From Prauserella alba (GTDB lineage: Bacteria; Actinomycetota; Actinomycetes; Mycobacteriales; Pseudonocardiaceae): a stretch of DNA of 64,000 bases. Numbering within the stretch: position 1 is the first letter of the stretch; the number at the start of each line of letters is the position of its first letter. This document shows, piece by piece, positions 28,362 to 47,074 of the stretch. Below the pieces are notes generated by a model. That model saw only the letters and a program-made list of their open reading frames with translations. It had not been told where the DNA came from and ran no database searches. The stretch is taken from assembly GCF_024171735.1 (NCBI RefSeq), contig NZ_JAMTCH010000008.1:62001-126000 (forward strand). The letters are read 5' to 3'. Position numbers and translations under genes: made by a program.

Positions 28362-29957
28362 TCAGAAGCCGAGCGCATTGCCCACGCTACTGATCGCGTC
28401 GCCTGCCTTGTCCTTGGCACCGCCGACCGCGTCACCCACGGCCTGGCCCGCGTCGCTCACGGCATCGCCGGCACTCGTCGCCGCGTCGACCACACCGCCC
28501 GGGTCGACCGACACGTCGAAGCCGACCTTGCCGCCCACGCCGAGTGCCGCGCCGGCGGACGCGCCGATGTGGAACTTACCGTCGTCACCCATGCCGAACT
28601 GAGCGTCGGCGGACGCCCCGACACCGGCCCACGCCTCGCCGTTCACACCGGCCCCGACACCGGCGACCTCGCCGCCGACGTCACCGCTGGCCTTGGCACC
28701 GGCGAACGCCTCGGCGCTGACGTCGGCACCGGTGAGACCGACACTGGCGTCGGCCGACGCCTCGGCGCCCGCCATGGCCTCGCCGCTGGCCGACACACTG
28801 GCGTGGTCGCCGAAGTTCATCTCACCTTCGACATCGCCCCTGGCACCGACGAACGCCTCGGCACTGGCCTGCGCGCCGAGCGCGTCGACACTCGCCTCGG
28901 CATTGGCGTCGCCGCCCACGAACCCGCTGGCGCTGCCGCTGCCCGACACGCCCATCCCGGTGTCGAACTCGCCTTCCACCTCGCCCTTCGCCAGGTAGGC
29001 CTCGGCGTTCGCGCCGGCGGCGAAACCGTCCTCGGTGACCTCGGCGTACGCCCCGGCGCCGGCACCGAGCACCGAACCCGAACCGGAAGCACCCGCCGAC
29101 ATGTCGCCGTACTCGGCACCCACGTCGAACTCGCCGCCCGCGACCTCGACGTCGTCACCGACCTCGTGGCGCACGGGGTCGATGCCGAGCATGCCGGGGC
29201 CTGGCAGGTCGATGCCCAGGCTGTCGAACAGCTCCCTGGCGCCGTCGTGCATGAGCTTGTCGGCCGGTTCGTCGCCGACCGTGTTCTGGTAGCTGCTGTT
29301 GCCGTTCTGATCCGTCTGCCAGCCGCCGGTGTCGACGTCCTCCCACTGGCCGGTCTCCGGGTTGAACTGCCGCTGCGTCTGCCGGTTGTCGGCGCCGAAC
29401 TCCTGCTCCCCGAACTTGTGCTGGAACCGGCCCTCCTCGTCGTGGGTCATGCCGAGCGCCATGGCCACGACGCCGCCTTCCGCGGCGACGGCCTTCCTCG
29501 CAGCGTCGAGGATCTGCTGCGCCTCCGCCATGGCGGGCCCGCCCGGGTCCTCGAACGGTACCATCGGGCCGCCCACCATCGGGCCCAGCGCACGTTGCGC
29601 GTCGTACTGCGCCTTCGCCGCCCGGCTGGCCGCCCTCGCCTGGTGGTACAGCTCGATCGCACGCTGCGCCTCGCCCTGCCCCCAGGTCAGGATGTCGGCG
29701 TAGTTCGCCAACTGCTCGCCGCCCTGCCCGACGGCCTCGGCGGCCTGCCCCCACTTGGGCGGTTCCTCGGCGAAGACCGACCGGAACGTCGTCGCCGCGT
29801 CCCCGACCCAGCCGGCCGGGTCGATCGTGCCGAGCGTCGAACCGATCTCGTCGGCGACGTTGATCGGATCGACCAACGAGCCGAGATCGGACGAGATCAC
29901 CTCGGGTTCGCCGGGAATGAGCGCCTTCGGGTCGTCGGTCTGCCCCAGTTCCGCCAT
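28362..29957 (-). CDS. Long Ala/Gly-rich repetitive T7SS-associated protein
   Basis: A 531-residue protein. Residues 1-200 form an alpha-helical WXG100-like region (PAGWVGDAATTFRSVFAEEPP, WGQAAEAVGQGGEQLANYAD, WGQGEAQRAIELYHQARAAS), the type seen in putative T7SS-secreted proteins. A middle segment (about 170-270) is hydrophilic, with a WEDVDTGGWQTDQNGNSSY stretch. From about 270 to 500 the protein is built of imperfect repeats rich in Ala, Gly, Asp and Glu, for example SAEAFAGAKASGDVGGEVAG and NGEAWAGVGASADAQFGMGD. No cysteine and no recognisable toxin domain is seen. Start and upstream stop overlap. Confidence 0.75.
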   Translation of the reverse strand: MAELGQTDDPKALIPGEPEVISSDLGSLVDPINVADEIGSTLGTIDPAGWVGDAATTFRSVFAEEPPKWGQAAEAVGQGGEQLANYADILTWGQGEAQRAIELYHQARAASRAAKAQYDAQRALGPMVGGPMVPFEDPGGPAMAEAQQILDAARKAVAAEGGVVAMALGMTHDEEGRFQHKFGEQEFGADNRQTQRQFNPETGQWEDVDTGGWQTDQNGNSSYQNTVGDEPADKLMHDGARELFDSLGIDLPGPGMLGIDPVRHEVGDDVEVAGGEFDVGAEYGDMSAGASGSGSVLGAGAGAYAEVTEDGFAAGANAEAYLAKGEVEGEFDTGMGVSGSGSASGFVGGDANAEASVDALGAQASAEAFVGARGDVEGEMNFGDHASVSASGEAMAGAEASADASVGLTGADVSAEAFAGAKASGDVGGEVAGVGAGVNGEAWAGVGASADAQFGMGDDGKFHIGASAGAALGVGGKVGFDVSVDPGGVVDAATSAGDAVSDAGQAVGDAVGGAKDKAGDAISSVGNALGF

Positions 29958-30412
29958 CACCGCTCCTGTCCCTCGCTACCGGCACCGCCGTCGAGGACGG
30001 CGCTGATGCCCCCCGCGGCCGCGCCTCCCACGGCGCCGCCGAGGCCGCCCGCGATACCGCCCACGGCACCGCCGACCGCGCCGCCCACGGCTCCGCCTGC
30101 CGCCATACCGCCCGCGGCGCTCTCGACCGCGTTGCCCAGCGTGTCCAGCGACGACCGGGTGTCGTCATCGGATTCGAGGTACTGGGCGGCGGCCGACCCG
30201 AGCTGGCCCCCCAGTTCCTCGGCCTTGCCCTTCAACGTCTCGACACGCTTGCGCATGCTCTCGATGTAGAGCTGCCACGCCTGCTGCACCGCGTCGTTCC
30301 CGTAGTCGCCGCTCGGTCCCTGCCAGACCAGTCCGGCCGCGCCCCCTGCGGTCTCACCGATCCGTCCCGCGGTCCCGCGCAGTTCGTCAGGAACGGCATC
30401 GAAGCCTGTCAT
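29957..30412 (-). CDS. Small WXG100-like protein with glycine-zipper tail
   Basis: A 151-residue protein. Residues 1-95 look like a helical hairpin of the WXG100 type, with WQG (30-32) in the place of WxG and YLESD (78-82) matching the YxxxD/E export motif of ESX substrates. Residues 96-138 are a hydrophobic Gly/Ala run with repeated GGAVGGAVGG units, a glycine zipper that could insert in a membrane. The ATG at 30412 has AAGGAG upstream; the longer frame is ignored. It is the first gene of a four-gene overlapping operon. No EccA-E machinery is present in the window. Confidence 0.7.
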   Translation of the reverse strand: MTGFDAVPDELRGTAGRIGETAGGAAGLVWQGPSGDYGNDAVQQAWQLYIESMRKRVETLKGKAEELGGQLGSAAAQYLESDDDTRSSLDTLGNAVESAAGGMAAGGAVGGAVGGAVGGIAGGLGGAVGGAAAGGISAVLDGGAGSEGQER

Positions 30413-30701: not shown

Positions 30702-32081
30702 TCACGTCGCTTCCGTCACCCCGGCCAACTCCAGCACCAGATCCCGGACGTCCGCGGCCGCGATGCGGTCGCGCTGCGTTGCCGGGTCGCTGCACAACAA
30801 CAACGGGCCCTCGGCAGGGTCGTCGGGCAGCCGGCCATGCGTGCCCTTCACCCAGCGCCCGTCCATCGGCACGACGTTCATCGTGTACCGCAGGCCCAGC
30901 TTCTTCCTCGCCAGCCCGAGCAACGCCCGTGCCTTCACCGTGGGATCGGCCGGGTCCAGGAACAGCTCCGCCGGGTCGTAACCGGGCTTGCGGTGGATGT
31001 CGACGCCGCGGGCGAAGTCCGGGGCGCGGGCGTCGTCCAGCCAGTAGTAGTACGTGAACCACGCGCCCTGCTCCGCGACCAACACCAACTCGCCCGCGCG
31101 CTCGTGGTCGATGCCGTAGTCCGCCTGCGCCTCGCGGTCCAGCACGAGGTCCACACCGGGCAGGTCCTGGCACAGCTTCGCCACCGACGCGACGTCGGCC
31201 GGGTTCGCGACGTAGACGTGCGCGACCTGGTGGTCGGCCACCGCGAACGCCCGCGACGTCCACGGGTCCAGGTACTCCATGCCCTCCTGGGTGTAGACCT
31301 CCAACAGTCCGGACTGCCGCAGCATCCGGTTGACGTCGACGGGCCGGGACGCGGGCGTGATGCCGTACTCGCTCACCACCACGACCGTCGCGCCGGACGC
31401 CCGCGCGTCGTCGAGCAGCGGCGCGACGGTGCGGTCGACGTCGCGCACGGCGGCGAGCGCCTGCGGACTGTCCGGGCCGTGGCGTTGCAGGTCGTAATCC
31501 AGGTGGGGGACGTACGCCAGCGTCAGGTCCGCGTCCGGCAGCAGCCGCCGGGACGCCCCGACCACCCATTCGCTGGAACGCAACGACGCCGTCGGGCCCC
31601 AGTAATTGAACAGCGGGAACGTGCCCAGCTCCTCGGTGAGCTCGTCGTGCAGCTCCGGCGGGCGCGCATAGCAGTCCGGCGACTTGCGGCCGTCGGCGTG
31701 ATAGACCGGGCGCGGCGTGATGGTCCAGTCGGTGCTGGCGCCCATCGCGTACCACCAGCACACGTTGGCCGCGCGGTAGCCGGGATCGGCGCGCCGGGCG
31801 GTCTCCCACACCTTCTCGCCCTGCACCAGCCGGTTGTGCTGGCGCCACAGGTAGACCTCGCCGAGATCGCGGAAGTACCAGCCGTTGCCGACGATGCCGT
31901 GCTCGCGCGGCGGACGTCCGGTGAGCATCGTGGATTGCGCCGAGCACGTGACGGCGGGCAGCACGGTGTCGAGCTGCGCCTGCCAGCCGTCCGCGGCGAG
32001 CGCGCGCAGGCGTGGCGCGTGCGCGAGCAGCCGTGGTGTCAGTCCGACGATGTTGAGCAGCAAAACCTTGTTCGTACTCAT
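30702..32081 (-). CDS. Alkaline phosphatase-superfamily protein (EboF-like)
   Basis: A 459-residue nucleotide pyrophosphatase/phosphodiesterase-like protein, the last gene of the Ebo-type cluster. The nucleophile threonine is likely in LPAVTCSAQSTMLTGRPPREHGI (shown in part), metal ligands in YVPHLDYDLQRHGPD and a late histidine in DIHRKPGYDP. The first metal-binding aspartate of the superfamily appears as asparagine (LLLNIVGLT), and the DDHG-type motif reads SEYGI, so activity may be altered. No signal peptide is seen, so it is cytoplasmic. The ATG at 32081 overlaps the eboE-like stop by 4 bp. Confidence 0.82.
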   Translation of the reverse strand: MSTNKVLLLNIVGLTPRLLAHAPRLRALAADGWQAQLDTVLPAVTCSAQSTMLTGRPPREHGIVGNGWYFRDLGEVYLWRQHNRLVQGEKVWETARRADPGYRAANVCWWYAMGASTDWTITPRPVYHADGRKSPDCYARPPELHDELTEELGTFPLFNYWGPTASLRSSEWVVGASRRLLPDADLTLAYVPHLDYDLQRHGPDSPQALAAVRDVDRTVAPLLDDARASGATVVVVSEYGITPASRPVDVNRMLRQSGLLEVYTQEGMEYLDPWTSRAFAVADHQVAHVYVANPADVASVAKLCQDLPGVDLVLDREAQADYGIDHERAGELVLVAEQGAWFTYYYWLDDARAPDFARGVDIHRKPGYDPAELFLDPADPTVKARALLGLARKKLGLRYTMNVVPMDGRWVKGTHGRLPDDPAEGPLLLCSDPATQRDRIAAADVRDLVLELAGVTEAT

Positions 32082-33244
32082 GTGGTCTCCAATCCGGCTC
32101 GCCGCATCCGGTCGGCGACCCAGCGCAGTTCGGCGGCGAGCCCGGAGACCAGCTCGGCGTCGGTGTTCGGGCGCTGCGCCTCCGGCAGCACCGACCAGGT
32201 GTAGGTCTCCATCTCGACGTGGTCGGTCAGCGCGGCCGGCCCGCCGAGCAGGGCGTCCAACGTCTCGCCGAGTTCGTGCTGTGTGGACTCCAGCGGTGGT
32301 TCGGGACGTCGATGGATCGGCACGTGGAAGTGCACGCGCCACGGCCCGGTGCCTCGCAACGCGCGGCGACCGTCGACGGCTTCCGGCAGGTCGTCGCGTT
32401 CGGCCACCCGCGACGGCCCGCGTTCGCGCACCTGGTGCAGGAATCGGTCCTCGGCGTACGACGACAACGCCTGCCGGGTGGCTACGTCACCCGGTGTCGC
32501 GGCGTGCAGCGCCGCCGAGGCCTGGGTCTTCACGATCGGCAGTCCGGCATCGGTGAGCCGCCGCACCGCCGACGCCGGGTCCTCGAACGCCACCGCGAGG
32601 TGGCAGGCGTCCAGGCACAGTCCGATGTGGTCGGTGTCGATGCCGGAGAGCTGTTCGATCGCGTCGTCGACCGTCTCCACCACGCAGCCGGGCTCGGGTT
32701 CCAGCCCGACCCGGATCGGCCTGCCGGTCTCGGCGGTTTGCTTGGCGAGCCCTTCCGCCAGCCGGTCCAGCAGCTCGCGTGCCCGCAGGCGCCGGTCGGA
32801 GTACCACGGCGCCCGCCACGCCAGCGGCACCGTCGAGATGCTCCCGCGCGCGGCGTCGTCCGGAAGCAGCCGCGCCAGCACCCGTGCGCACGTCAGGGTG
32901 TACTCCAGCCGCCGCGTCTCCACCCAATCGGGGCTGTACACCGCCTTCTTCACCACCGGGTCGTGGAACCCCTGGTACGGAAAGGCGTTCAGCGTGACGA
33001 CCTCGAGGCCGTGGTCGTCCAGAGTGGCCCGGAGCCGGTCCAGATCCGGATGGTCGGCCAGATGCGCGGCCAGCGGCGCGGGCAGCCACAGTCCGACGCC
33101 GAGCCGGTCGACGTCGAGTTCCGCGCGGATGCCGCCGCCGAACACCTGGAGCTGTCGCAACAGGCCGTCGATGTCCTCGGCGGGATGGACGTTGGTGCAG
33201 TACGCGAGATGGACGCGGCGGCCATCAGGGTGAGCGAAGCGCAT
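32078..33244 (-). CDS. Metabolite traffic protein EboE-like TIM barrel
   Basis: A 388-residue xylose-isomerase-like TIM barrel. Conserved pieces are LAYCTNVHPAEDIDGLLRQL, VVTLNAFPYQGFHDPVVKKAVY, GLEPEPGCVVETVDDAIEQL and GLCLDACHLAVAFEDP, with E and D/H at positions typical of metal-binding barrels. These blocks match EboE of Ebo clusters, which in cyanobacteria are needed to move scytonemin precursors to the periplasm and in other bacteria occur with uncharacterised metabolites. Biochemical function is unknown. The gene follows the TatD-like gene by 9 bp and overlaps the phosphatase-like gene by 4 bp. Confidence 0.85.
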   Translation of the reverse strand: MRFAHPDGRRVHLAYCTNVHPAEDIDGLLRQLQVFGGGIRAELDVDRLGVGLWLPAPLAAHLADHPDLDRLRATLDDHGLEVVTLNAFPYQGFHDPVVKKAVYSPDWVETRRLEYTLTCARVLARLLPDDAARGSISTVPLAWRAPWYSDRRLRARELLDRLAEGLAKQTAETGRPIRVGLEPEPGCVVETVDDAIEQLSGIDTDHIGLCLDACHLAVAFEDPASAVRRLTDAGLPIVKTQASAALHAATPGDVATRQALSSYAEDRFLHQVRERGPSRVAERDDLPEAVDGRRALRGTGPWRVHFHVPIHRRPEPPLESTQHELGETLDALLGGPAALTDHVEMETYTWSVLPEAQRPNTDAELVSGLAAELRWVADRMRRAGLETT

Positions 33245-33253
33245 GCCGCCCCC

Positions 33254-34114
33254 TCACGCCGGACGCTGGCCGCGCAGCACCGAGTTGCCCTCGAACGTCG
33301 CGGTCTGATCGATATCGACCGGGTCGAGGAGCAGCCGTCCACTCTGGCCGTAGAACGCGACGGGGTTGCGCCACAGCACGCGGTCGACGTCGTCCTCGCT
33401 GAACCCGGCGCCGCGCATCGCCTGCCCGGTCTTGGCGGTCTTCAGCGGGTCACTGCGGCCCCAGTCGGCGGCGGAGTTGACGATCATTCGGTCCAGGCCG
33501 TGGTCGGCGAGGATCCGGACCATGCGACGTTCGTCCATTTTGGTGTCCGGGTAGATGGAGAACCCGAGCCAGCAGCCGGACCCGGCCACCATGTCGACGG
33601 TGACCTCGTTCAGGTGATCGACCAGCACCCGTTCCGGTGGCAGCCCGGACGCCGCGACCAGTTCCAGGGTGCGGCGGGTGCCCTCGACCTTGTCGCGGTG
33701 CGGGGTGTGCACCAGCACCGGCAGGTCGTGCTCCCCGGCGAGGTCGAGCTGCCGGACGAACGCCTTCTCCTCGTCGTCGGTCATCGAGTCGAACCCGACT
33801 TCGCCTACCGCCACCACGCCGTCCTTGGCGAGGTAGCGCGGCAGCGCGTCCAGCACCTCGGCGCACCGGGGGTCGTTGGCCTCCTTCGGGTTGAGCGCGA
33901 TCGTGCAGTGGTGGCGGATGCCGAACTGGGCGGCACGGAACCGTTCCCAGCCGACGAGCGCGTCGAAGTAGTCGTAGAACGACGCGGCGCTGCTGCGCGG
34001 CTGGCCGAGCCAGAAAGCCGGTTCGGTGACGGCGCGGACCCCGGCGGCGTACATGGCTTCGTAGTCGTCGGTGGTGCGGGAGGTCATGTGGATGTGGGGG
34101 TCGAAGATGCGCAT
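33254..34114 (-). CDS. TatD family hydrolase (EboB-like)
   Basis: A 286-residue metal-dependent hydrolase of the amidohydrolase superfamily. Metal ligands are visible as DPHIHM (residues 5-10), E in VAVGEVGFDS, H in VLVHTPH, H in LVDHLNEV and D in NSAADWG. In Ebo clusters this is EboB. It differs from DNase-type TatD by an insert after the first strand and a C-terminal tail (LLLDPVDIDQTATFEGNSVL). The ATG shares bases with the eboA-like stop (TGATG), so the pair is coupled. Confidence 0.85.
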   Translation of the reverse strand: MRIFDPHIHMTSRTTDDYEAMYAAGVRAVTEPAFWLGQPRSSAASFYDYFDALVGWERFRAAQFGIRHHCTIALNPKEANDPRCAEVLDALPRYLAKDGVVAVGEVGFDSMTDDEEKAFVRQLDLAGEHDLPVLVHTPHRDKVEGTRRTLELVAASGLPPERVLVDHLNEVTVDMVAGSGCWLGFSIYPDTKMDERRMVRILADHGLDRMIVNSAADWGRSDPLKTAKTGQAMRGAGFSEDDVDRVLWRNPVAFYGQSGRLLLDPVDIDQTATFEGNSVLRGQRPA

Positions 34115-34797
34115 CAGTCCTCCTGGTCGTGCCGCACGCGTTGCTGGTCGGGGACAGTTCCCCCATCGAGGTCCGGGCGTTTCGAGGTCAACCGGTTGAG
34201 CAGGCAGGTCGCGTCGGCCGGGACGTCACGGCCCGCCGCACGACGCTCGGCGGCGAAGCCTTCAACCATCCGGGCCAACTCGGCGTCGCCACGCTCCGCG
34301 AAGCCGGACACCGCCGCCAGCGGAACGCCGGTGAACAGGCACTTCAGCACGCCGTGCCGCCAGTTGTGCGGGTCGAGGTGCTTGGCCGCGTACGGCCCGA
34401 GGGCCGCCGCGATGAGCCGGGTGTCGTTGCCACGGAGGGCGTCCCCTACCAGGTCGAGCGCGGCGTTCCCCACGTCGAGGTGGTCCACAGCCCTCAGCAC
34501 GGCGCGTTTCTCGTCGGCGTCGCCATGCCGGTACAGCGCGCCGATCTCCGTCACGAGGGCATCCCGATTCCAGGCCTGCGCCGCGGCACGAAGCAACGCG
34601 ACCCTGGCCTGGTCCTCGATCCGAGGCGTGACCATGCCGTCGGGGTCGTCCGGGTCGGCCGGTCCCCTGCCGACGGCGCGCGCCACGGCGGGGAACAGCA
34701 CCGCGATCCGCGCCGGGGTGGACGTCACCTCGCCGGTCAGCTCGGTCAGCCTGGCCCTGCCCTCGGTGCCGAGCACGTCGTCCAGCAGGTCGGTCAC
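34114..34797 (-). CDS. EboA domain protein
   Basis: A 227-residue, mostly helical protein. Segments ARIAVLFPAVARAVGR, RVALLRAAAQAWNRDALV, EKRAVLRAVDHLDVG and YAAKHLDPHNWRHGVLKCLFTGVPLA (in parts) match the EboA family, with the HLDPHNWRHGVLKCLF stretch the most diagnostic. EboA has no known catalytic activity. Presence of this family is what marks the locus as Ebo-type. Overlaps the neighbouring TIM-barrel and TatD genes by a few bases at both ends. Confidence 0.85.
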   Translation of the reverse strand: MTDLLDDVLGTEGRARLTELTGEVTSTPARIAVLFPAVARAVGRGPADPDDPDGMVTPRIEDQARVALLRAAAQAWNRDALVTEIGALYRHGDADEKRAVLRAVDHLDVGNAALDLVGDALRGNDTRLIAAALGPYAAKHLDPHNWRHGVLKCLFTGVPLAAVSGFAERGDAELARMVEGFAAERRAAGRDVPADATCLLNRLTSKRPDLDGGTVPDQQRVRHDQED

Positions 34798-35654
34798 GGC
34801 GTCACCTCCGCCGCGAGGGCCGCCGCCTGCGCGGTGCGCAACGCGTCGAGCGAACGCGCGGCCACGGCCGGTGCAGCGTGGGAATGCCGGGGCAGCTCCA
34901 CGCTGACCAGGCCCTGATAACCGACGGCGAGCAGCGCGCGGAGCGTGGCGGGCAGGTCGACGTCGCCGTCGCCGAACTCCAGGTGTTCGTGCACCCCGGG
35001 TCGCATGTCGTCGATCTGCACGTTGCCCAGCAGCGGCCCGACGTCACGGATGCGGTCCTGCGGCGGGGCGGGTTCGTTGCAGACGCAGTGTCCGACGTCG
35101 ACGGTCACCGTGAGGTGTTCGGGTTCGCCGAGCCTGCGGCGCAGGTCCAACACCCCGTCGAGGGTGTCGACGAACATGCCCGGCTCCGGTTCGAACGCGC
35201 ACCGCACGTCCCGGCGTTCGGCCTCGGCCAGCACCTGCTCGACGCCGCTGGTGAGCCGGTGCCAGCCCTGTAGAGCGCCGGCGCCCTCGGGCAATGTCCC
35301 CGACCAGAACGACACCGCCTCCGCGCCGAGATCGGCGGCGACGCGGATCGCGCGATGCAGGTAGTCGATCCGGCGCTCGCGGCCGACGTCGGACACCAGC
35401 GTCGGTTCGTGTTTGCGCCACGGGTCCATGACGTAGCGGGCGCCCGTCTCGATGACGACGGCGAGCCCGTACGCGGCAAGCCGGCGGCGCACGTCGTCGG
35501 TGCGGGCGGCGAGGTCGGGCGCGAACGGGTCGAGATGCGGATGGTCGAGGGTGAGCGCGACACCGTCGTAGCCGAGATCGGCGATCACGCCGAGGGCGTC
35601 GTCCAGGCGGTGTCCGGCGAATCCGTTGGTGCCGTAGCCGAAGCGCAGGGTCAT
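34794..35654 (-). CDS. Sugar phosphate isomerase/epimerase-like TIM barrel
   Basis: A 286-residue AP-endonuclease-2/xylose-isomerase-like barrel. It begins MTLRFGYGTNGFAGHRLDDAL and shows VALTLDHPHLDPF, VIETGARYVMDPWRKHEPTL, CAFEPEPGMFVDTLDG and VTVDVGHCVCNEP, with H, E, D and H candidates for a divalent metal site. A second TIM barrel besides EboE is typical of the actinobacterial version of this cluster. It may isomerise or epimerise the cyclitol-like intermediate, but this is not established. Confidence 0.82.
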   Translation of the reverse strand: MTLRFGYGTNGFAGHRLDDALGVIADLGYDGVALTLDHPHLDPFAPDLAARTDDVRRRLAAYGLAVVIETGARYVMDPWRKHEPTLVSDVGRERRIDYLHRAIRVAADLGAEAVSFWSGTLPEGAGALQGWHRLTSGVEQVLAEAERRDVRCAFEPEPGMFVDTLDGVLDLRRRLGEPEHLTVTVDVGHCVCNEPAPPQDRIRDVGPLLGNVQIDDMRPGVHEHLEFGDGDVDLPATLRALLAVGYQGLVSVELPRHSHAAPAVAARSLDALRTAQAAALAAEVTP

Positions 35655-36532
35655 GTCGGCGACACCACCTTCGAGGCCAGCCGCGCGATCGGTCCAGCGG
35701 CCAGGAGTCCCGCGGCGAGCCCGATCGCCCCGGTCCCCGCCACGAGAGCGGCATGCAATCCGATAACGCCTCGCACGCCTGCGCCGGTCGCGGTGCGTAC
35801 CGTGGCGGCGTCCGGGTTGCGCGCGGCGCGGGCCTGCGCACGGCCGACGGTGCCCGCGTACGTGGCGGCGAACGCGGCGCCGGCGACGGCGCGTCGCGTG
35901 TCGTGGGCGCGCCGGCCGCGACGTCGAGGTAGCGCGGCGGCCGCAGCCGCACCGGCCGCCGACGCCGTCGTGGCGAGTGCCGCCAGGCCGGTGCGCCGCG
36001 ATCCACCGTGCACCTCACCCCTACTCAGGCTGGTGACACCGAGCGTGTGCCCGGCGACCGCGGAGGCCGGCAGTGCCGCCCTCCGCGGTCGACCCCCAGC
36101 TCCGAGCAACACGTCCAACCCCCGCGCGGCCGCCATCACGGCGGGTCCGGCCGGGGTGTCTTTCGCGGCGAGGTCGTACGTCCACGCCGCGGCGGCGACC
36201 GGCACCGCGACCCGCACGGCGGCGCGGCCGCCCACGGCAGTGGCGATGCCCAGGCCCGCCCCGGTCAACCCGGCCGCCAGCGCGAGTGCCTCGCCGGGAC
36301 GCACCCTGCCGGACGGGATCGGGCGCTCGGGGCGTTCCACGGCGTCGAGCGAGCGGTCGGCGTAGTCGTTGAGCGCCATGCCCGCCAGGTAGAAGCACGC
36401 CGAGGCGGCCGGCATCGCCCAGCCACGCTTACCGTACGGCCAGCCCGCCGCCGCCCCGCCGGCAAGGCTGTCACCGGGGATGGTCAGTACGGCCGGCAGC
36501 CGTACCAACTCGACCGCGTCCCGGGTCTTCAT
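35651..36532 (-). CDS. UbiA-like prenyltransferase (SCO3242/EboC type)
   Basis: A 293-residue membrane protein of the UbiA superfamily with eight or nine predicted helices. The first prenyl-diphosphate motif is NDYADRSLD (residues 55-63) in the wider ALNDYADRSLDAVERPERP; the second is YDLAAKD, followed by PAVMAAARGLDVLLGAG. Between the two halves lies an unusually arginine-rich loop (PRRRGRRAHDTRR). It would attach a polyprenyl chain to a polar acceptor at the membrane. Sandwiched between a MIPS-like cyclase and EboA, a cyclitol acceptor is a reasonable guess. Confidence 0.88.
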   Translation of the reverse strand: MKTRDAVELVRLPAVLTIPGDSLAGGAAAGWPYGKRGWAMPAASACFYLAGMALNDYADRSLDAVERPERPIPSGRVRPGEALALAAGLTGAGLGIATAVGGRAAVRVAVPVAAAAWTYDLAAKDTPAGPAVMAAARGLDVLLGAGGRPRRAALPASAVAGHTLGVTSLSRGEVHGGSRRTGLAALATTASAAGAAAAAALPRRRGRRAHDTRRAVAGAAFAATYAGTVGRAQARAARNPDAATVRTATGAGVRGVIGLHAALVAGTGAIGLAAGLLAAGPIARLASKVVSPT

Positions 36533-37683
36533 CGGTCACCTCCGATTCGCTGGCACCACTCGACGAGGGCACGCCATTGGCCGGCCAGGTCGTGCCCGCC
36601 GCCCCCGGCGGGATCCTTGAAGAAGAAGCCGAGCGCGCCCAACGGACCGGATTCCCCGACCTGCCGGGCGCGTGCCACCAGCCGGGCGAGGTCGAGCACC
36701 AGCGGCGCGGCGAGCGCGGAATCGCAGCCCTGCCAGGTGAACTGCATCGACATCTTCGTGCCGAGGAATCCTTCGAACGACACCATGTCCCATGCCGTCT
36801 TCCAGTCACCGAGATCGTCGACGTAGTCGATGTGCAGCGGGCCGTCCACCGGCTCGCCCAGCATCTCGGTCAGCCCCTTGCCCTTGGACGCCGTCTTGCT
36901 CGTCGCCGTCACCGGATCGGCCAGTGCCCGACCGTCTCCCCCGCCGAGCAGGTTGTACGACGCCCAGGAGCGCACCCGGAGCGCGCGGGTCGCGAACATC
37001 GGCGCGAGCGCCGATTTGACCAGCGTCTCACCGGTCTTGCCGTCCGAACCCGCCCACGGCAGCCCCACCCGCTCGGCCAGTTGAGCCAGCGCGGGAAGCC
37101 GGGGGCCGGGGCTCGGCGTGAACGCGACGACCGGGCACCCCGCCCGCAGCGCCGCATAGGCGTAGAGCGAGCTGAGCGGCAACGGCGATTCGCCCGCCGC
37201 CAACGCCCGTTCCAGGGTGTCCAGATCGGACAGTTCGGGGGTGAGCTCGATCGGCGGTTCCGTCGTGGCGACGTCGATGACGATCACGTGGTCCAACGCG
37301 TGCGCCGCACGGAACCCGGCCAGGTCGCGGCTGACGCGCTCGATGGCGTCCCGCTGGGTCTCTTCCTCGCCGGTGACGCCGTGCCGGATGCGGGAGTCCA
37401 CCTGGGTCAGCCCGTCGTGCACCGCCCGCGCGAGCTCGATGCCGAACACCCCGCCGCCGGCCAGCGCCTCGGCGCGTTTCGGCAGCGTGTCGCAGGCGAC
37501 GTCGTGGCCGCCGATCAGCAGGTCGGCCACGGCGGGCGGCCGGGCGGCCGCCACCTCGGCGAGGTCGGTGACGCACCCGGTGCGCCGCGTCAGCCCCGCT
37601 GTCAGCGCGAGCGCGCCGACGGTAGCGGTGGTGGCCACCGACCCGCGCGCGCCGATGAACCACAGTCCGGTCTTCGGTGCCAT
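36529..37683 (-). CDS. Inositol-3-phosphate synthase family protein of the Ebo cluster
   Basis: A 384-residue member of the myo-inositol-1-phosphate synthase family, NAD-dependent enzymes that cyclise glucose 6-phosphate. The NAD fold appears as GLWFIGARGSVATTATVGAL; later blocks are AGSDGKTGETLVKSALAPM and WASYNLLGGGDG, with catalytic lysines in TASKGKGLTE and SFEGFLGTKMSMQFTWQG. It differs from the short actinobacterial Ino1 used for phosphatidylinositol and is the form found in SCO3242-type clusters. It may make a dedicated cyclitol. The ATG at 37683 has GGAGG upstream; the stop overlaps the prenyltransferase start. Confidence 0.88.
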   Translation of the reverse strand: MAPKTGLWFIGARGSVATTATVGALALTAGLTRRTGCVTDLAEVAAARPPAVADLLIGGHDVACDTLPKRAEALAGGGVFGIELARAVHDGLTQVDSRIRHGVTGEEETQRDAIERVSRDLAGFRAAHALDHVIVIDVATTEPPIELTPELSDLDTLERALAAGESPLPLSSLYAYAALRAGCPVVAFTPSPGPRLPALAQLAERVGLPWAGSDGKTGETLVKSALAPMFATRALRVRSWASYNLLGGGDGRALADPVTATSKTASKGKGLTEMLGEPVDGPLHIDYVDDLGDWKTAWDMVSFEGFLGTKMSMQFTWQGCDSALAAPLVLDLARLVARARQVGESGPLGALGFFFKDPAGGGGHDLAGQWRALVEWCQRIGGDR

Positions 37684-37714
37684 CCTCCGGCCTCCCTGGG
37701 GTGGTTGGGTTCTG

Positions 37715-37764
37715 GGAACGTGAGTCGTTGTGGCCGTCGCAGCGACCACAACGACTCACGTTCC
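37715..37764. terminator. Perfect 19-bp inverted repeat between the sugar operon and the Ebo cluster
   Basis: GGAACGTGAGTCGTTGTGG (37715-37733) and its exact complement at 37746-37764 flank a 12-nt loop. It lies 19 bp beyond the stop of the dehydrogenase-like gene and 32 bp before the MIPS-like gene. It could be a terminator, an mRNA stabiliser or a mobile repeat; there is no T-run. The arms have lower GC content than the surrounding sequence. Confidence 0.7.
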
Positions 37765-40013: not shown

Positions 40014-40973
40014 TCAGAAGCGCAGGTTGCGCAGGTAGGAGTAGCCGACCTCGGAGGTCCGGGGGACGCTCACGTCCGGGGTGTCGTTCTCGACGATGTA
40101 CTCCCGCACGGAGTGCGCGCGGAAAATGCGGGCGAAGTCGATGTGGCCGGTGCCCAGGTCGGCCATGTCGCCGTCGTGGGCGTGCCGGTCCTTGACGTGG
40201 TACTGCAGCACCTGCTGCGGCGCCGCCCGCATCGTGTCGATGGCGAAGCCTTCGGGGTCGCGCGCCCCGTCGCCGCTCTCGATGCCGCCGCGGACCACCC
40301 AGTAGATGTCGATCTCGAGGTGCACGAGCTTCGGGTCCAGTTCGGACGTCAGCACCTGCCACGGCGTGACGCCGCCACCGAGGTCGATCGTGAACTCGTG
40401 CGCATGGTTGTGGTAGCCGTAGTGCAGGCCGGCCGACCGGGCCACGTCGGCCTCGTGGTTCATCCGCTCGGCCCACCGCTGCCAGTCGGCCTTGTCGGAC
40501 GAGTTCAGGTAGGGCACCACCATGTACGACTGGCCGAGCGTGAGCGCGTTGTCGATCTTGGTGTGCAGGGCCTGCTCACTGTCGCTGATGCCGTCGTGGC
40601 CGGACGTCGCCGAGACGCCGATGCTGTCGTAGAACGCGCGCAGCTCCCGCGCGGTGCGGCCGAAGTAGCCGAGCGCCTGCTCCACCTTCGGGTAACCGGT
40701 GTCGGCCAGCATCCGCAACGTCGCGTCGAAGCCCGGCTCACCCTGCAGGGCGGAACGCACGGTATACAGCTGCATGCTGATCAACCCCGGCGGCACCCGA
40801 TGCCGGCCGGTGCCCTTGACGGTGGCCTGCGCCGCGGGTGCGGCGACGCCGGCGGCGAGCAGGCCGGCACCGACCGCACCGCCGAGTGCGGTCCGCAACG
40901 CACCTCGTCTGCTGAGGCCGCGCTCACCGAGCGCGCGGCGGACCGCGCTCTCACCATCGAATCCGTAACACAT
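40014..40973 (-). CDS. Secreted (Tat-type) sugar phosphate isomerase/epimerase-like TIM barrel
   Basis: A 319-residue TIM barrel with a leader: MCYGFDGESAVRRALGERGL, then SRRGALRTALGGAVGAGLLAAGVAAPAAQA, a twin-arginine signal. The mature domain shows ISMQLYTVRSAL, VEQALGYFGR, HYGYHNHAHEF and HLEIDIYWVVRGG, with H, E, D and H as a likely metal site. Similar secreted barrels accompany 3-keto-glycoside and other sugar-processing clusters. The MCYGFDGE start before the Tat motif is a recurrent feature of this group. The 87-bp gap to the upstream gene holds nothing notable. Confidence 0.85.
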   Translation of the reverse strand: MCYGFDGESAVRRALGERGLSRRGALRTALGGAVGAGLLAAGVAAPAAQATVKGTGRHRVPPGLISMQLYTVRSALQGEPGFDATLRMLADTGYPKVEQALGYFGRTARELRAFYDSIGVSATSGHDGISDSEQALHTKIDNALTLGQSYMVVPYLNSSDKADWQRWAERMNHEADVARSAGLHYGYHNHAHEFTIDLGGGVTPWQVLTSELDPKLVHLEIDIYWVVRGGIESGDGARDPEGFAIDTMRAAPQQVLQYHVKDRHAHDGDMADLGTGHIDFARIFRAHSVREYIVENDTPDVSVPRTSEVGYSYLRNLRF

Positions 40974-41060
40974 GAACCCTCCTTTTCCGTACTACTTCGT
41001 TGGAGACGTCAGGATTGGGTGCAGCCGCACGCGAGGCGAGGCGCGCGGCGGTGTCGAGGT

Positions 41061-42062
41061 TCAGGAACTGAACGCCGCGTCGAACGCGGCGTCCGGCGGG
41101 TCGAACAGCTGCTCGCGCACGTAGCGCAGCGACTCGGGAGCGCCCCGCAGCCGGTCCATGCCCGCGTCCTCCCACTCGATCGAGATCGGACCGTCGTAGC
41201 CGATGGAGTTCAGCACGCGGAAACACGCCTCCCACGGCACGTCGCCGCGTCCGGTGGACACGAAATCCCAGCCACGCCGGGGATCCCCCCACGGCAGGTG
41301 CGAGCCGAGCCTGCCGTTGCGGCCGTTTCCGGTGTTGCGCTTGGTGTCCTTGCAGTCGACGTGGAAGATCCGGTCCGCGAAGTCGACGAGGAACCCGGCG
41401 GGGTCGATGTCCTGCCACACCATGTGGCTCGGATCCCAGTTCAGGCCGAACGACTCCCGGCGCCCGATCGCGTCGAGGGTGGCCACGGTGGACCAGTAGT
41501 CGTAGGCGATCTCCGACGGGTGCACCTCGAGCGCGAACCGCACGCCCTCTGCCTCGAAGACGTCCATGATCGGGTTCCACCGGTCGGCGAAGTCCTGATA
41601 TCCGGCCTCGATCAGCTCGGCGGGTACCGGCGGGAACATCGCCACGTACTTCCAGCTCGCCGAACCCGTGAAGCCGACGACGGTGTTCACGCCGAGCCGG
41701 GCGGCGACCCGCGCGGTGTGTTTCATCTCCTCGGCCGCACGTTGCCGGATTCCCTCCGGCTCGCCGTCGCCCCAGATCCGCTCGGGCAGGATCGCCTTGT
41801 GGCGCGCGTCGATCGGGTCGTCGCAGACCGCCTGTCCCTTGAGGTGGTTGGAGATCGCCCACACGCCGAGCCCGTACTTGTCCAGGATGTCCAACCTGGA
41901 CCGGAGATACGACTCGTCCTCCACCGCGCGCCAGACGTCGAGATGATCACCCCAGCAGGCGATCTCCAGTCCGTCGTAGCCCCACTCCGAGGCCAGCTTC
42001 GCGACCTCCTCGAACGGCAGGTCCGCCCACTGCCCGGTGAACAGAGTGACCGGTCGTGCCAT
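41061..42062 (-). CDS. Sugar phosphate isomerase/epimerase
   Basis: A 333-residue cytoplasmic TIM barrel of the IolE/xylose-isomerase-like group. It contains [77 protein letters not shown] and [12 protein letters not shown]; the E, D, H and E residues form the usual metal site. It is paired with a Gfo/Idh/MocA dehydrogenase whose stop overlaps its start, a common arrangement for sugar or inositol oxidation followed by isomerisation. The ATG at 42062 is preferred to GTG 42065 on ribosome-binding-site spacing. Confidence 0.88.
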
Positions 42063-43249
42063 CACGCCACCTCTCTCGTCGTGCCTGCTGCCTTCGATTC
42101 ATCCACGGCGACCCACTGACTGCCGGCCGCCGCACTGGCCTGTACCGCGGCGACCACCCGCTGTACCCGCAGCCCGTCGGCGAACGACGGCTCGGGGTCG
42201 GTGCCGTCCGCGATGGCGGTGAGCAGATCGGCGGCCTGGTGCGAGAAGCCGTGTTCGTAGCCGAGCAGGTGGCCGGGCGGCCACCACGCACCCAGGTACG
42301 GGTGCGTCGGCTCGGTGACGAGGATCCGGGTGAAGCCCTGCGTCTCCGCCGGCGCCGAGGCGTCGTAGAACCACAGGGTGTTCATGTCCTCGAAGTCGAA
42401 CGCGAGGCTGCCCTCGGTCCCGTTCAGCTCGATGCGAATGGCGTTCTTGCGGCCTGCGGCGTAGCGGGTGGCCTCGAAGGTGGCCATCGCGCCGCCGCTG
42501 AACCGGCCGAGGAACACCGCCACATCGTCCACGGTGACCTGCCCGGTGCCGTCCCCGTCGGGTCGCGGGCGTTCGGTGACGAAGGTGTCCAGCGCGGCGC
42601 TGACCCCGGTGATGTGCTCATCGGTGAGGAACTGGGTCAGGTCGATCACGTGAGCGCCGATGTCACCGAGCGCGCCGGAGCCCGCCCTGGTGGCGTCGAG
42701 CCGCCAGGAGTACGGCGCGGCCGGGTCGGTGAGCCAGTCCTGCAGGTACTGCGCCCTGACGTGGCGCAGCGCGCCGATCCGGCCGTCGCGCACGAGTTTT
42801 CTGGCAAGCGCGAGTGCGGGAACGCGCCGGTACGTGAATCCGACCATCGCCCGGACGCCCTCGGCGTGGGCCTGTTCGGCGGCCTTGGCCATCTGCTCGG
42901 CTTCGTCGACCGAGTTGGCGAGCGGCTTCTCGCAGAGCACGTGCTTGCCCGCCGCGAGCGCGGCGATCGCGATCTCGGCGTGCGTGTCACCGGGGGTGCA
43001 GATGTCGACGAGGCCGACATCCTCCCTCGCGATCAGTGCGCGCCAATCGGTTTCCACGCTCTGCCAGTCGAACCGGCGGGCCATCTCCTCGGCCTTGGCG
43101 CGGTCGCGCCCGCCGAGCGCGACCAGCCGTGGTTCGAGCTTCGGGTCGAAGAAGCTCTTGGCGCCCCGCCACCCCTGGGAATGCGCCATCCCCATGAAGG
43201 CGTAGCCGATCATGCCGATCCCGATCGGTGCGCTGTCCGCGTGCGTCAT
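42062..43249 (-). CDS. Gfo/Idh/MocA family oxidoreductase
   Basis: A 395-residue NAD(P)-dependent sugar dehydrogenase. The Rossmann fold is [37 protein letters not shown] carries the EKP motif; [19 protein letters not shown] holds the conserved D-x-x-x-H pair. It probably oxidises a sugar or cyclitol imported by the ABC system and passes it to the TIM barrel encoded immediately downstream. The start has an AGGGAGG-type site and lies 38 bp after the binding-protein gene. Confidence 0.9.
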
Positions 43250-43287
43250 CAGCCCTCCCTGGGGCGGTTCGTGGGTGTGGTGCGATC

Positions 43288-44331
43288 TCAGGACTCGAAC
43301 CCGAGCGGGAGGTACTCCTCGACGTTCTCCTTCGTGACGACGGGCGCGTTCAGCACGATCCGGCGCGGCACCTCGTGCTGCACCAGGTCGGACATGCCCT
43401 TGTCCTGGGCGAGCAGCCGCGCGAGGCGGACACCGTCGGCGGCCTGTGTCGGCGGGTAGAGCACGGTGGCTTCCATCTCGCCCTGCTGGATCCAGCGCAT
43501 CGCGTTCTTCGAGCCGGCACCACCGATGAAGAAGAACTCGTCACGGCTGGCGTTGTCGAACGCGGCCTTGACACCCACGCCCTGGTCGTCGTCGTGGTTC
43601 CAGATGATGTCGATCTCCGGCACGGCCTGCAGCAGGTTGGATGCCGCCTGCTCACCGGACTGCACGGTGAAATCCGCCGCGACCCGGTGGTCGACGTTCT
43701 GGTCGCACTCCTTCAGTGCGTCCTTGAACCCGGCGGAGCGGTCCTGGGTCAGTGGCAGCGAGTCGGTGCCCGCGATCTCGGTCACGACCGCGTCGCCGCC
43801 GAGGTCGTTCTCCTTGACCAGGTTGCAGGCGTAGGTGCCGGCCGAGACGCCCATGCCGTAGTTGTCACCGAGGATCGTGGTGCGGGCGGCGAACTCACTG
43901 GAGAACTCGCGGTCGACGTTGACGACCGGGATGCCCGCGTCCATCGCCTGCGTGGCGACCTTGGTCAGCGCCGCGCCGTCCGTCGGCAGCAGCACGATCG
44001 CGTCGACGCCGTCGTTGATGAACGTCTCGATGTGGCTGATCTGCACGCTCGGGTCGTCGGTGCCTTCCGCGACCCGGAGCGTGACGTCCTCGTACTTCTT
44101 GCCCTCGGCGACGGCGGTCGAGTTGATCGCACCCAGCCAGCCGTGGTCCGCCTCCGGGCCGGAGAATCCGATGACGACTTCCTTGCCGGGGTCGTCGTTC
44201 GAGCTGACCGCCCTCGGATCGGTGTTGGTCTCCTGCGACGCCGGTTCGTTGCTCGTACAGGCGGTGGAGAGCAGGGCGAGCGCCGCGACGGCGCCGGTGG
44301 CACGAAGGAGTCTGCTGCTGCGGTGCGGCAT
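43288..44331 (-). CDS. Sugar ABC transporter substrate-binding lipoprotein
   Basis: A 347-residue periplasmic binding protein of the ribose/xylose (RbsB, PBP1) type with a lipoprotein signal (TGAVAALALLSTAC). The mature part starts VVIGFSGPEADHGWLGAIN and includes GVDAIVLLPTDGAAL, GIPVVNVDREF, DNYGMGVSAG and IIWNHDDDQGVGVKAAF. Aromatic and acidic residues in these loops commonly bind sugars. Together with the permease and the double ATPase it forms a complete importer. Confidence 0.9.
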   Translation of the reverse strand: MPHRSSRLLRATGAVAALALLSTACTSNEPASQETNTDPRAVSSNDDPGKEVVIGFSGPEADHGWLGAINSTAVAEGKKYEDVTLRVAEGTDDPSVQISHIETFINDGVDAIVLLPTDGAALTKVATQAMDAGIPVVNVDREFSSEFAARTTILGDNYGMGVSAGTYACNLVKENDLGGDAVVTEIAGTDSLPLTQDRSAGFKDALKECDQNVDHRVAADFTVQSGEQAASNLLQAVPEIDIIWNHDDDQGVGVKAAFDNASRDEFFFIGGAGSKNAMRWIQQGEMEATVLYPPTQAADGVRLARLLAQDKGMSDLVQHEVPRRIVLNAPVVTKENVEEYLPLGFES

Positions 44332-44386
44332 GGTTCTCTCCTCGGGAGTGGGTTCCGGTTGGGTTTCGCGTAGGGAGTCGCGCGGT

Positions 44387-45427
44387 TCACGGCGGGGAGC
44401 CGTTGCGGGCCGCGACGCGCTGTTGGAGCAGCACCGCGACGACGATGATCACGCCCTTCGCGACGGCCTGGGTGGACGTGTCGAGGTTGTTGAGCGTGAA
44501 GACGTTGGTGAGCGTGGTGAAGATCAGCACACCGAAGACGGTGCCGACGATGGTGCCGCGACCACCGGACAGCAGCGTCCCGCCGATGACGACGGCCGCG
44601 ATGGCGTCGAGCTCCATGAGCATGCCGTGCGTCGACGTGCCCGCCGTGGTGCGCGCCAGCAGCATCACCGCCGCGAGTCCACAGGCGACACCGACGAGGA
44701 CGTACAGCAGCGTGGTGTGGCGCTTGACGTTGATGCCCGCCAGCCGCGCGGCCTCCGGGTTGCCGCCGACGGCGAGGGTCCGGCGGCCGAAGGTGGTGCG
44801 GTTGAGCAGAATCCAGCCCGCGACGGCGACCACCGCGAAGATGATGACGAGCACCGGGATGCCGAACACCCTGCCGCCGATGACGTCGACGAAGTCGCTG
44901 ACCGTGACGACCTGCGTGCGCTTCTGCGCGATGATCTCCGCGAGACCGCGCGCCCCGGCCATCATCGCCAGCGTCACGATGAACGCGGCCATCCTGCCGT
45001 AGGCGATGAGTATCCCGTTCACGAGGCCGCAGCCCCCACCGACCAGCAACGCCGTGGTGACCATGACGATCCAGTGGGTGTCCTCGGCGAGCGTCTGCGT
45101 GGCGAGGGTCGACGCCCACACCGACGACAGCGCCACGATCGCACCGACCGACAGGTCGATACCGCCGCCGGTGATCACGAACGTCATACCGACGCTCACC
45201 ACGCCGATCACCGACGCGAGACGCAGGATCGTCATCATGTTGTCGAAGCTGACGAACCGATCGCCCGCGGTGATCACACCGACGATGCACAGCAGCAGCA
45301 GCGCAAACACCAGACCCAGGTTGCGCCCGGCAGGACCGGAGAACATCGCGGTGACCCGGCTCAACGGCCCTTCGGTGTGCCCGCCGGGCGTGCCGGCGCC
45401 GGTTCTCTCGTCGGACGCGGTCGTCAT
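44387..45427 (-). CDS. Sugar ABC transporter permease
   Basis: A 346-residue RbsC/AraH-type permease with about ten membrane helices. The family segment GGGIDLSVGAIVALSSVW and the permease loop GGNPEAARLAGINVKRH are intact, as is GTLLSGGRGTIVGTVFGV. The N-terminal 35 residues are hydrophilic. ATG 45427 follows GGGAGGG; an ATG at 45445 has less support. A single permease gene implies a homodimer in the membrane. Confidence 0.92.
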   Translation of the reverse strand: MTTASDERTGAGTPGGHTEGPLSRVTAMFSGPAGRNLGLVFALLLLCIVGVITAGDRFVSFDNMMTILRLASVIGVVSVGMTFVITGGGIDLSVGAIVALSSVWASTLATQTLAEDTHWIVMVTTALLVGGGCGLVNGILIAYGRMAAFIVTLAMMAGARGLAEIIAQKRTQVVTVSDFVDVIGGRVFGIPVLVIIFAVVAVAGWILLNRTTFGRRTLAVGGNPEAARLAGINVKRHTTLLYVLVGVACGLAAVMLLARTTAGTSTHGMLMELDAIAAVVIGGTLLSGGRGTIVGTVFGVLIFTTLTNVFTLNNLDTSTQAVAKGVIIVVAVLLQQRVAARNGSPP

Positions 45428-47066: not shown

Positions 47067-47074
47067 GACGGTGG

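What the first reader, a model, noticed from the sequence alone, without database searches (positions are those of the whole stretch)
30702..37683. Actinobacterial Ebo-type cluster with an inositol-phosphate-synthase-like cyclase in the place of EboD
Seven overlapping genes encode a MIPS-like cyclase, a UbiA-like prenyltransferase, a TIM barrel, EboA, TatD-like EboB, TIM-barrel EboE and phosphatase-like EboF. Cyanobacterial Ebo clusters have a dehydroquinate-synthase-like cyclase at the equivalent step. Both enzyme families make carbocycles from sugar phosphates with NAD, which suggests one scheme: make a cyclitol, prenylate it at the membrane, then isomerise and dephosphorylate. The product would be an undescribed prenylated cyclitol or carrier lipid. 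Gene content is seen in the sequence, cluster identity comes from known Ebo gene families, and the pathway is inference.
Basis: partly seen in the sequence, partly recalled or inferred. Interest (0 to 1): 0.8.

Follow-up and report, generated by a model that had tools for sequence, protein, structure and literature searches.

The report
Ebo lipid operon with inositol-phosphate synthase
Many actinobacteria carry a variant of the widespread but unsolved ebo gene cluster in which the usual ring-forming enzyme is replaced by a second, archaeal-type inositol-phosphate synthase, which suggests that the unknown ebo product is a membrane lipid built on inositol.

Summary
Seven co-directional genes (30702-37749, minus strand) encode MIPS, an SCO3242-family UbiA prenyltransferase, a TIM barrel, EboA, EboB, EboE and EboF. 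The MIPS is not the housekeeping Ino1: the same genome has a mycothiol-type Ino1 elsewhere (671.7 bits, cut-off 638; window protein 29.6). It resembles Archaeoglobus MIPS (39% identical; seven putative active-site residues kept in 38 of 38 aligned sequences). In 246 sampled genomes of the phylum, EboE, EboA, this UbiA family and this MIPS type occur in the same 11. Of 59 named actinobacterial loci with full flanks, 46 have MIPS and none an EboD hit. Gemmatirosa and, in reduced form, three haloarchaeal plasmids also have MIPS. Nine of nine EboD-type loci examined lack MIPS and the gene-3 TIM barrel, so a MIPS+TIM pair seems to replace EboD. The prenylated-cyclitol idea is not new (Yurchenko 2016; Klicki 2018); I found no paper on the MIPS substitution. 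Best reading: glucose 6-phosphate to inositol phosphate, then prenylation by a DGGGP-synthase-like enzyme. No reaction is shown. A dehydrogenase-like gene lies within 8 kb at 8 of 12 clusters.

The parts
36529..37749 (-). MIPS-like cyclase (archaeal-type inositol-phosphate synthase); ATG at 37683, alternative GTG at 37749
   Evidence: PF07994 144 bits, PF01658 110.6 bits; nearest solved sequence 1u1i A. fulgidus MIPS, 225 bits; model pLDDT 90.8, TM by query 0.85-0.86 to four A. fulgidus MIPS entries and 0.85 to Bacteroides MIPS 7nwr
35651..36532 (-). UbiA-superfamily prenyltransferase, SCO3242 family (position of EboC)
   Evidence: NF045897 359 bits over 260; NF035940 EboC 130.6 under 250; best solved match of a 16-sequence alignment profile is DGGGP synthase 6m31, 70.7 bits
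34794..35654 (-). xylose-isomerase-like TIM barrel that goes with the MIPS variant
   Evidence: PF01261 139 bits; no hit better than E 0.04 in 9 EboD-type loci
34114..34797 (-). EboA, all-helical protein
   Evidence: NF035938 166.9 bits; model pLDDT 93.3, helices only; no PDB fold match at E 0.001 or better
33254..34114 (-). EboB, TatD-like metal-dependent hydrolase
   Evidence: PF01026 51.6 bits; nearest solved AF_1765, 108 bits
32078..33244 (-). EboE, TIM barrel
   Evidence: NF035939 431.3 bits over 250
30702..32081 (-). EboF, nucleotide pyrophosphatase/phosphodiesterase-like
   Evidence: PF01663 232.1 bits
37783..39957 (-). glucose/sorbosone-dehydrogenase-like protein with PKD domain, 33 nt upstream of the MIPS GTG start; frequent neighbour, not in the core set
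   Evidence: PF07995 95.5 bits and PKD; signal-peptide-like N-terminus read by eye; same family within 8 kb at 8 of 12 clusters

Best explanation
The seven genes are a MIPS-type variant of the ebo operon that makes a prenylated, inositol-derived membrane compound. Most likely order: MIPS turns glucose 6-phosphate into inositol 3-phosphate with NAD; the accompanying TIM barrel adjusts this cyclitol, the pair standing in for EboD; the membrane prenyltransferase joins a prenyl chain to a hydroxyl of the cyclitol (phosphate), as DGGGP synthase does to a glycerol phosphate; EboF removes or opens the phosphate; EboB and EboE tailor; EboA is a helical scaffold. The compound then acts at or outside the membrane, perhaps together with secreted dehydrogenase-like proteins. 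Shown here: gene content, conservation, co-occurrence, absence of EboD, conserved MIPS residues, predicted MIPS fold. Inferred: every reaction, their order and the role of the product.
For: Same 11 of 246 genomes for EboE, EboA, SCO3242-type UbiA and high-scoring MIPS (>=337 bits; next best 223). Each of the 11 has two MIPS, one of them in the cluster. Named loci: 46 of 59 with MIPS, 0 of 59 with EboD, 43 of the 46 in one seven-gene order; of the 13 genomes whose locus lacks MIPS, 12 hold a MIPS of 333-361 bits elsewhere. D236, N266, K285, K289, K317, D343 and K378 kept in 38 of 38 aligned MIPS; N266, K289 and K378 line up with the residues mutated in the A. fulgidus entries 3qw2, 3qvw and 3qvx; that the other four belong to the active site is recalled. 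UbiA profile best matches DGGGP synthase (70.7 bits; chlorophyll synthase 45.4, 4-hydroxybenzoate octaprenyltransferase 24.4). No locus examined has both cyclases. In Gemmatirosa the UbiA groups with actinobacterial MIPS-type UbiA (93/91) while its EboB groups with Deinococcus EboD-type EboB (100/100), and one clade of bacterial MIPS-type EboB is rejected (p 3e-9): the prenyltransferase may follow the cyclase.
Against: No reaction has been tested. Ubi-297, an EboC from flavobacterial ebo clusters, farnesylated 6 of 14 aromatic acceptors, best the quinoline acids (PMC9235831, passages; all 14 were aromatic), so the acceptor may be aromatic. TIM-barrel relatives of gene 3 act on carbonyl sugars, inositol phosphate has no carbonyl, and no oxidoreductase is in the seven-gene set. 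UbiA-follows-cyclase rests on one locus with unstarred support; the EboB tree carried a long-branch warning that names Gemmatirosa; EboF does not reject one MIPS-type clade (p 0.083 bacterial, 0.153 all) and starred branches of the EboF and UbiA trees force only one change; Aureibacter's EboD-type EboC falls on the MIPS side of the UbiA tree on a long branch. Thirteen of 59 loci lack MIPS in place, 12 of these still with the TIM barrel, and S. alanosinicus has no cluster-type MIPS at all. Two Halomarina plasmids have an equally close MIPS (46-47% identity) with no ebo-like neighbours in the flanks read, so this MIPS type also works without ebo.
Confidence: 0.5

Rival explanations
1. Metabolite-export reading: the cluster makes a carrier that helps another compound cross the membrane, as proposed for the scytonemin monomer in Nostoc; the inositol part is only a head group. 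This concerns the role of the product more than its structure.
For: [quoted passage not shown] Here a dehydrogenase-like gene lies near 8 of 12 clusters, and on a Streptomyces plasmid a condensation-domain (NRPS-type) gene lies about 5 kb upstream.
Against: No lipid-linked monomer was found in Nostoc (PMC6282210). No export substrate is evident in the window; the genes upstream look by eye like a sugar-uptake operon.
Confidence: 0.25
2. The MIPS only raises inositol supply (an extra Ino1), and the prenyltransferase acts on an unrelated, perhaps aromatic, acceptor.
For: Ubi-297 farnesylates quinoline acids (PMC9235831). The MIPS keeps the residues of ordinary MIPS. Halomarina has a close MIPS without ebo neighbours.
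Against: All 11 sampled genomes already have another MIPS. In the sample the cluster MIPS type is found only with the other genes, it sits in one fixed order, and it takes the place of EboD.
Confidence: 0.2
3. The MIPS homologue has changed substrate, as its relative Ari2 seems to have, and makes the same cyclitol as EboD from another sugar phosphate.
For: Ari2 (6k96) is a MIPS relative named five-membered-cyclitol-phosphate synthase in the PDB. EboD was proposed to use sedoheptulose 7-phosphate (PMC5133447).
Against: The window protein is much nearer to A. fulgidus MIPS (225 bits) than to Ari2 (57 bits), with the same putative active-site residues, and comes with an extra TIM barrel that EboD-type loci lack.
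Confidence: 0.15

Closest known systems
ebo operon (eboABCDEF) of Bacteroidota, Cyanobacteria and eustigmatophyte plastids (Yurchenko 2016, Klicki 2018)
   Same: EboA, EboB, EboE, EboF, a UbiA enzyme at the EboC position, tight operon
   Different: no EboD; MIPS plus a TIM barrel instead; UbiA passes the SCO3242 cut-off and not the EboC one; other gene order
Archaeal MIPS (A. fulgidus, 1u1i)
   Same: predicted fold, compared active-site residues, 39% identity
   Different: in the tree the actinobacterial cluster MIPS are nearer to haloarchaeal MIPS than to A. fulgidus, whose branch is long
Mycothiol-type Ino1 of actinobacteria (TIGR03450)
   Same: MIPS superfamily; the seven compared residues
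   Different: own-genome copy 21% identical; window protein 29.6 bits against a 638 cut-off
DGGGP synthase (6m31)
   Same: UbiA superfamily; best solved match of the UbiA profile; acts on a phosphorylated polyol (established knowledge)
   Different: makes archaeal glycerol lipids; no cyclitol
SCO3242 and SCO3243, listed under the S. coelicolor CDA cluster (PMC3610822)
   Same: NCBIfam names the prenyltransferase family after SCO3242; SCO3243 is listed as myo-inositol phosphate synthase, beside a separate inositol synthase InoA (SCO3899/3900 operon; PMC7581861)
   Different: the S. coelicolor region was not fetched; that its neighbours are the other ebo genes is my guess, not tested
ebo clusters of Saccharomonospora (PMC9235831)
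   Same: relatives of the window's organism, noted in print as having ebo genes
   Different: the text holds no 'inositol'; its description of the cluster names EboD as a 3-dehydroquinate synthase

Membership tests
ebo operon | EboA present | tested here: met
   NF035938 166.9 bits, cut-off 50
ebo operon | EboB (TatD-like) present | tested here: met
   PF01026 51.6 bits, cut-off 27; 45-73% identity to EboB of the loci
ebo operon | EboC (NF035940 equivalog) present | tested here: not met
   130.6 bits, cut-off 250; instead over the cut-off of the SCO3242 family, 359 against 260
ebo operon | EboD sugar-phosphate cyclase present | tested here: not met
   no EboD hit (two EboD queries, E 1e-5) in 94 loci; the whole own genome has one distant hit, 36% identity, probably AroB, not examined further
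ebo operon | EboE present | tested here: met
   NF035939 431.3 bits, cut-off 250
ebo operon | EboF (PF01663) present | tested here: met
   232.1 bits, cut-off 23
ebo operon | genes clustered as an operon | tested here: met
   overlaps of 1-4 nt at five of six junctions; 43 of 46 loci in one order
ebo operon | makes an isoprenoid-cyclitol or aids metabolite export | not testable with these tools
   needs mutants and chemistry; itself a proposal for the known clusters
myo-inositol-phosphate synthase | both Pfam MIPS domains | tested here: met
   PF07994 144, PF01658 110.6
myo-inositol-phosphate synthase | active-site residues | tested here: met
   seven positions kept in 38 of 38; three tied to A. 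fulgidus mutants, four by recall
myo-inositol-phosphate synthase | converts glucose 6-phosphate to inositol phosphate | not testable with these tools
   needs an enzyme assay
mycothiol-type Ino1 (TIGR03450) | score over the equivalog cut-off | tested here: not met
   29.6 bits against 638; own second copy 671.7
haloarchaeal loci as ebo operons | EboA present | tested here: not met
   no EboA hit in L129-L131, but only about 9 kb each was read
haloarchaeal loci as ebo operons | EboE present | tested here: not met
   the two TIM barrels of L130 score 21.5 and 28.4 bits against 250; those of L129 and L131 were not scanned

The most novel reading that the evidence does not exclude
Actinobacteria, Gemmatimonadota and haloarchaea share a so far undescribed class of prenyl-inositol (ether) lipids, made by a MIPS-TIM-UbiA module that has been exchanged for the EboD module more than once, and this lipid works as a membrane-bound partner of secreted dehydrogenase-like (PQQ-type, ScyD/E-type) proteins rather than as a simple carrier.
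Probability: 0.15. Interest if true: 0.85.

Novelty: new variant of a known kind. Interest (0 to 1): 0.62.

Why it matters
The ebo product was unknown when the operon was named in 2016, and I found no paper that identifies it since. A natural exchange of EboD for a true-looking inositol-phosphate synthase points to a testable starting material (glucose 6-phosphate), a testable intermediate (inositol phosphate) and a testable prenyl acceptor, in genetically tractable Streptomyces. It also links an operon known from cyanobacteria and algal plastids to actinobacteria with large secondary metabolism and, in reduced form, to archaea.

Tried and rejected
Rejected: ordinary Ino1 (a separate true Ino1 exists and the scores are far apart); chance gene neighbours; EboD hidden in the flanks (no hit in 94 loci).

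Led nowhere: Foldseek of the EboA model gave no match at E<=0.001, so only its helical character is said. Haloarchaeal prevalence could not be surveyed. Two paper searches returned no paper.

Of the non-actinobacterial plasmid records with EboE I looked at 10: Ketogulonicigenium 1 of 5, Mycetohabitans 1 of 3, Salipiger 2 of 2 (one strain), Deinococcus 2 of 2, Roseivivax, Azospirillum, Aureibacter and Gemmatirosa 1 each; nine have EboD, Gemmatirosa has MIPS. Haloarchaeal records came from the MIPS query: 3 of 5 have ebo-like neighbours; the two Halomarina do not in the flanks read (9 kb and 4 kb). In the MIPS tree 8 of 11 housekeeping Ino1, the own copy among them, were not retrieved by BLAST and are missing; the own copy was only aligned. 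Starts were picked by script and rows cut at 430 residues (MIPS tree) or 520 (other trees). In the EboB/EboF/UbiA trees L003 was labelled MIPS-type although its own locus has no MIPS. The dehydrogenase count includes the window, where I first saw the gene (7 of 11 without it), used rounded genome sizes, joined split hits of one gene, and its 8 kb limit was set after looking. Paper searches return capped listings of open papers only.
Full report
What is there. On the minus strand, in transcription order: MIPS (36529-37749; ATG at 37683), UbiA prenyltransferase (35651-36532), TIM barrel (34794-35654), EboA (34114-34797), EboB (33254-34114), EboE (32078-33244), EboF (30702-32081). Five of six junctions overlap by 1-4 nt and EboB-EboE is 9 nt apart, so the genes read as one operon. 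MIPS, SCO3242-type UbiA, EboA domain, EboE and EboF pass curated cut-offs; the UbiA misses the EboC equivalog cut-off (130.6 against 250). The window's genome has 5.6 Mb in 11 contigs; the best named EboE match is Prauserella halophila (94%), so the source is probably close to Prauserella.

The MIPS is not Ino1. The genome has two MIPS genes. The other one passes the mycothiol Ino1 equivalog model (671.7, cut-off 638); the window protein scores 29.6 and is 21% identical to it. Its nearest solved sequence is A. fulgidus MIPS (225 bits; M. tuberculosis Ino1 29 bits). The predicted structure (pLDDT 90.8) matches four A. fulgidus entries best by E-value, with TM 0.85-0.86 by query; Bacteroides MIPS 7nwr also reaches 0.85, M. 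tuberculosis Ino1 0.58. Seven putative active-site positions are identical in 38 of 38 aligned sequences; three correspond to residues mutated in A. fulgidus entries, the other four are active-site residues by recall. In the tree the 22 actinobacterial cluster MIPS form one clade (100/99) next to haloarchaeal MIPS (95/88), with Gemmatirosa and A. fulgidus outside.

Co-occurrence. In 246 genomes drawn from the phylum, EboE passes its cut-off in 11 genomes (12 places), the SCO3242-type UbiA in the same 11 (12 places), the EboA domain in the same 11 (12 places), and a MIPS of 337 bits or more in the same 11 (11 places; 35 other genomes have weaker hits at E<=1e-20, at or below 223 bits). Each of the 11 has two PF01658 matches. 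Of 11 loci fetched from ten other genomes of the sample, ten have all seven genes in one order; L003, a second copy in G128, lacks MIPS.

Named loci. Of 80 loci, 59 have 8 kb on both sides of EboE. Of these, tblastn finds MIPS in 46, UbiA in 56, TIM in 57, EboA in 57, EboB in 59, EboF in 57, EboD in 0 and a relative of the window's dehydrogenase-like gene in 26. The 13 without MIPS are all Streptomyces; 12 of those 13 genomes have a MIPS of 333-361 bits elsewhere, and S. alanosinicus has none.

Other phyla. Nine non-actinobacterial plasmid loci have a gene annotated 3-dehydroquinate synthase with the ebo genes: Ketogulonicigenium, Mycetohabitans, Salipiger (two plasmids), Roseivivax, two Deinococcus, Azospirillum, Aureibacter. 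None has a hit to MIPS (best E 0.29) or to the gene-3 TIM barrel (best E 0.04); Ketogulonicigenium has another TIM-barrel gene. Gemmatirosa has MIPS, TIM, UbiA, EboF and EboB, with EboE on the other strand and no EboA hit. Three haloarchaeal plasmids (Halobaculum, Natronococcus, Halocatena) have MIPS, UbiA, a TatD-like protein, two TIM barrels and an EboF-like protein; no EboA or EboD was found in the roughly 9 kb read of each, and the TIM barrels of L130, the only ones scanned, are far below the EboE cut-off. I call these ebo-like, not ebo. Two Halomarina plasmids have a close MIPS without such neighbours.

What moves with what. In EboB, EboF and UbiA trees the cyclase label needs two changes each; starred branches force two only for EboB. 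Gemmatirosa's EboB sits with Deinococcus EboD-type EboB (100/100, with a long-branch warning), and one clade of bacterial MIPS-type EboB is rejected (p 3e-9); for EboF the same is not rejected (p 0.083); for UbiA Gemmatirosa is with the actinobacterial MIPS-type (93/91, not starred), and one clade of all MIPS-type UbiA is not rejected (p 0.25). This suggests that MIPS, TIM and UbiA travel together, as expected if UbiA acts on the cyclitol. It rests on one locus.

Mechanism. The UbiA profile (16 sequences, three of them EboD-type and two haloarchaeal) best matches DGGGP synthase among solved structures, an enzyme that prenylates a hydroxyl of a phosphorylated polyol (established knowledge). MIPS gives inositol phosphate. 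The simplest chain is therefore inositol phosphate, prenylation at the membrane, then hydrolysis by EboF. The TIM barrel's reaction is open: its solved relatives include ketose epimerases and xylose isomerases, which act on carbonyl sugars, and inositol phosphate has no carbonyl. Ubi-297, an EboC from flavobacterial ebo clusters, farnesylated 6 of 14 aromatic acceptors, quinoline acids best and phenols or catechols not at all (PMC9235831, passages read). This counts against a cyclitol acceptor, though all 14 were aromatic.

A partner outside the cell. A gene for a glucose/sorbosone-dehydrogenase-like protein with PKD domain and signal-peptide-like start lies 33 nt upstream of MIPS. The family is within 8 kb of 8 of 12 clusters, with 0.215 expected from its number per genome (P 2e-12; caveats under Tried and rejected). 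Genes annotated as PQQ-dependent dehydrogenases lie beside the Natronococcus and one Salipiger cluster, and S. camelliae has a ScyD/ScyE-family gene there; these three were not compared with the window's gene. ScyE is the periplasmic enzyme in Nostoc (PMC6282210). This suggests that ebo products and secreted proteins of this kind work together.

What is known. Yurchenko 2016 (PMC5133447; passages, section 12 part 1 and section 21 read) named ebo, predicted an isoprenoid-cyclitol product, and does not hold the word inositol in its main text. Yurchenko 2018 (PMC6092422; passages) has no 'inositol' either. Klicki 2018 (PMC6282210; [quoted passage not shown] PMC9235831 (passages) reports ebo genes in Saccharomonospora, relatives of the window's organism, without the word inositol. 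SCO3242 and SCO3243 (listed as myo-inositol phosphate synthase) stand under the CDA cluster in PMC3610822 (passages), and SCO3243 is listed again in PMC3897704 (passages); the inositol synthase InoA of S. coelicolor is separate (PMC7581861, passage). The listings of searches, capped at 8-20 papers each, showed me no paper on MIPS-type ebo clusters; the library lacks most subscription journals and all preprints, supplements were not open to me, and public annotation already carries the gene names.

Verdict. A well-conserved MIPS-type variant of a known, unsolved operon. Sequence, synteny and co-occurrence are strong; the chemistry is inference.

Noticed in passing
window 40014-47087 (-) and 47094-48392 (+): Upstream sugar operon, read by eye from ORF translations (only the first gene was scanned, PF01261): a TIM barrel with Tat-like signal, another TIM barrel, Gfo/Idh-like oxidoreductase, sugar-binding lipoprotein, permease and ATPase of an ABC transporter, and a divergent ROK-like regulator. 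The Tat-like TIM barrel recurs near the cluster in Prauserella, Saccharomonospora, Saccharopolyspora and Jiangella at 64-95% identity.
   Followed up: partly
window 28362-29960 (-): Protein with a putative type VII secretion signal domain (PF21725, 124 bits) downstream of the cluster, with a Gly/Ala-rich C-terminal part.
   Followed up: no
L003 8701-12808; L051, L052, L053, L065, L066, L067, L070: Streptomyces ebo loci without MIPS carry a CrtO-like FAD enzyme and an inositol-monophosphatase-family gene upstream of UbiA (7 of the 80 loci, 82-94% identical to those of L003).
   Followed up: partly
L129-L131: Haloarchaeal plasmids carry a reduced ebo-like cluster with MIPS, UbiA, TatD-like, two TIM barrels and EboF-like genes; no EboA found in the 9 kb read.
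   Followed up: partly
L133 4641-10876, L134 4674-10849: Hymenobacter and Roseomonas plasmids have a MIPS near Gfo/Idh-family genes and a YcaO gene; in L133 a TIM barrel, cut by the end of the locus and 53% identical to window gene 3 over 148 residues, follows: possibly another inositol-derived pathway.
   Followed up: partly
L015: On a Streptomyces plasmid the MIPS-type cluster lies between condensation-domain, ornithine carbamoyltransferase and MFS genes on one side and 4'-phosphopantetheinyl transferase and ABC transporter genes on the other, a secondary-metabolism setting.
   Followed up: no
L019 15469-15792: PLSDB marks a short 2Fe-2S protein gene as a tetracycline resistance gene at 100% identity; this looks like a mis-placed prediction.
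   Followed up: no
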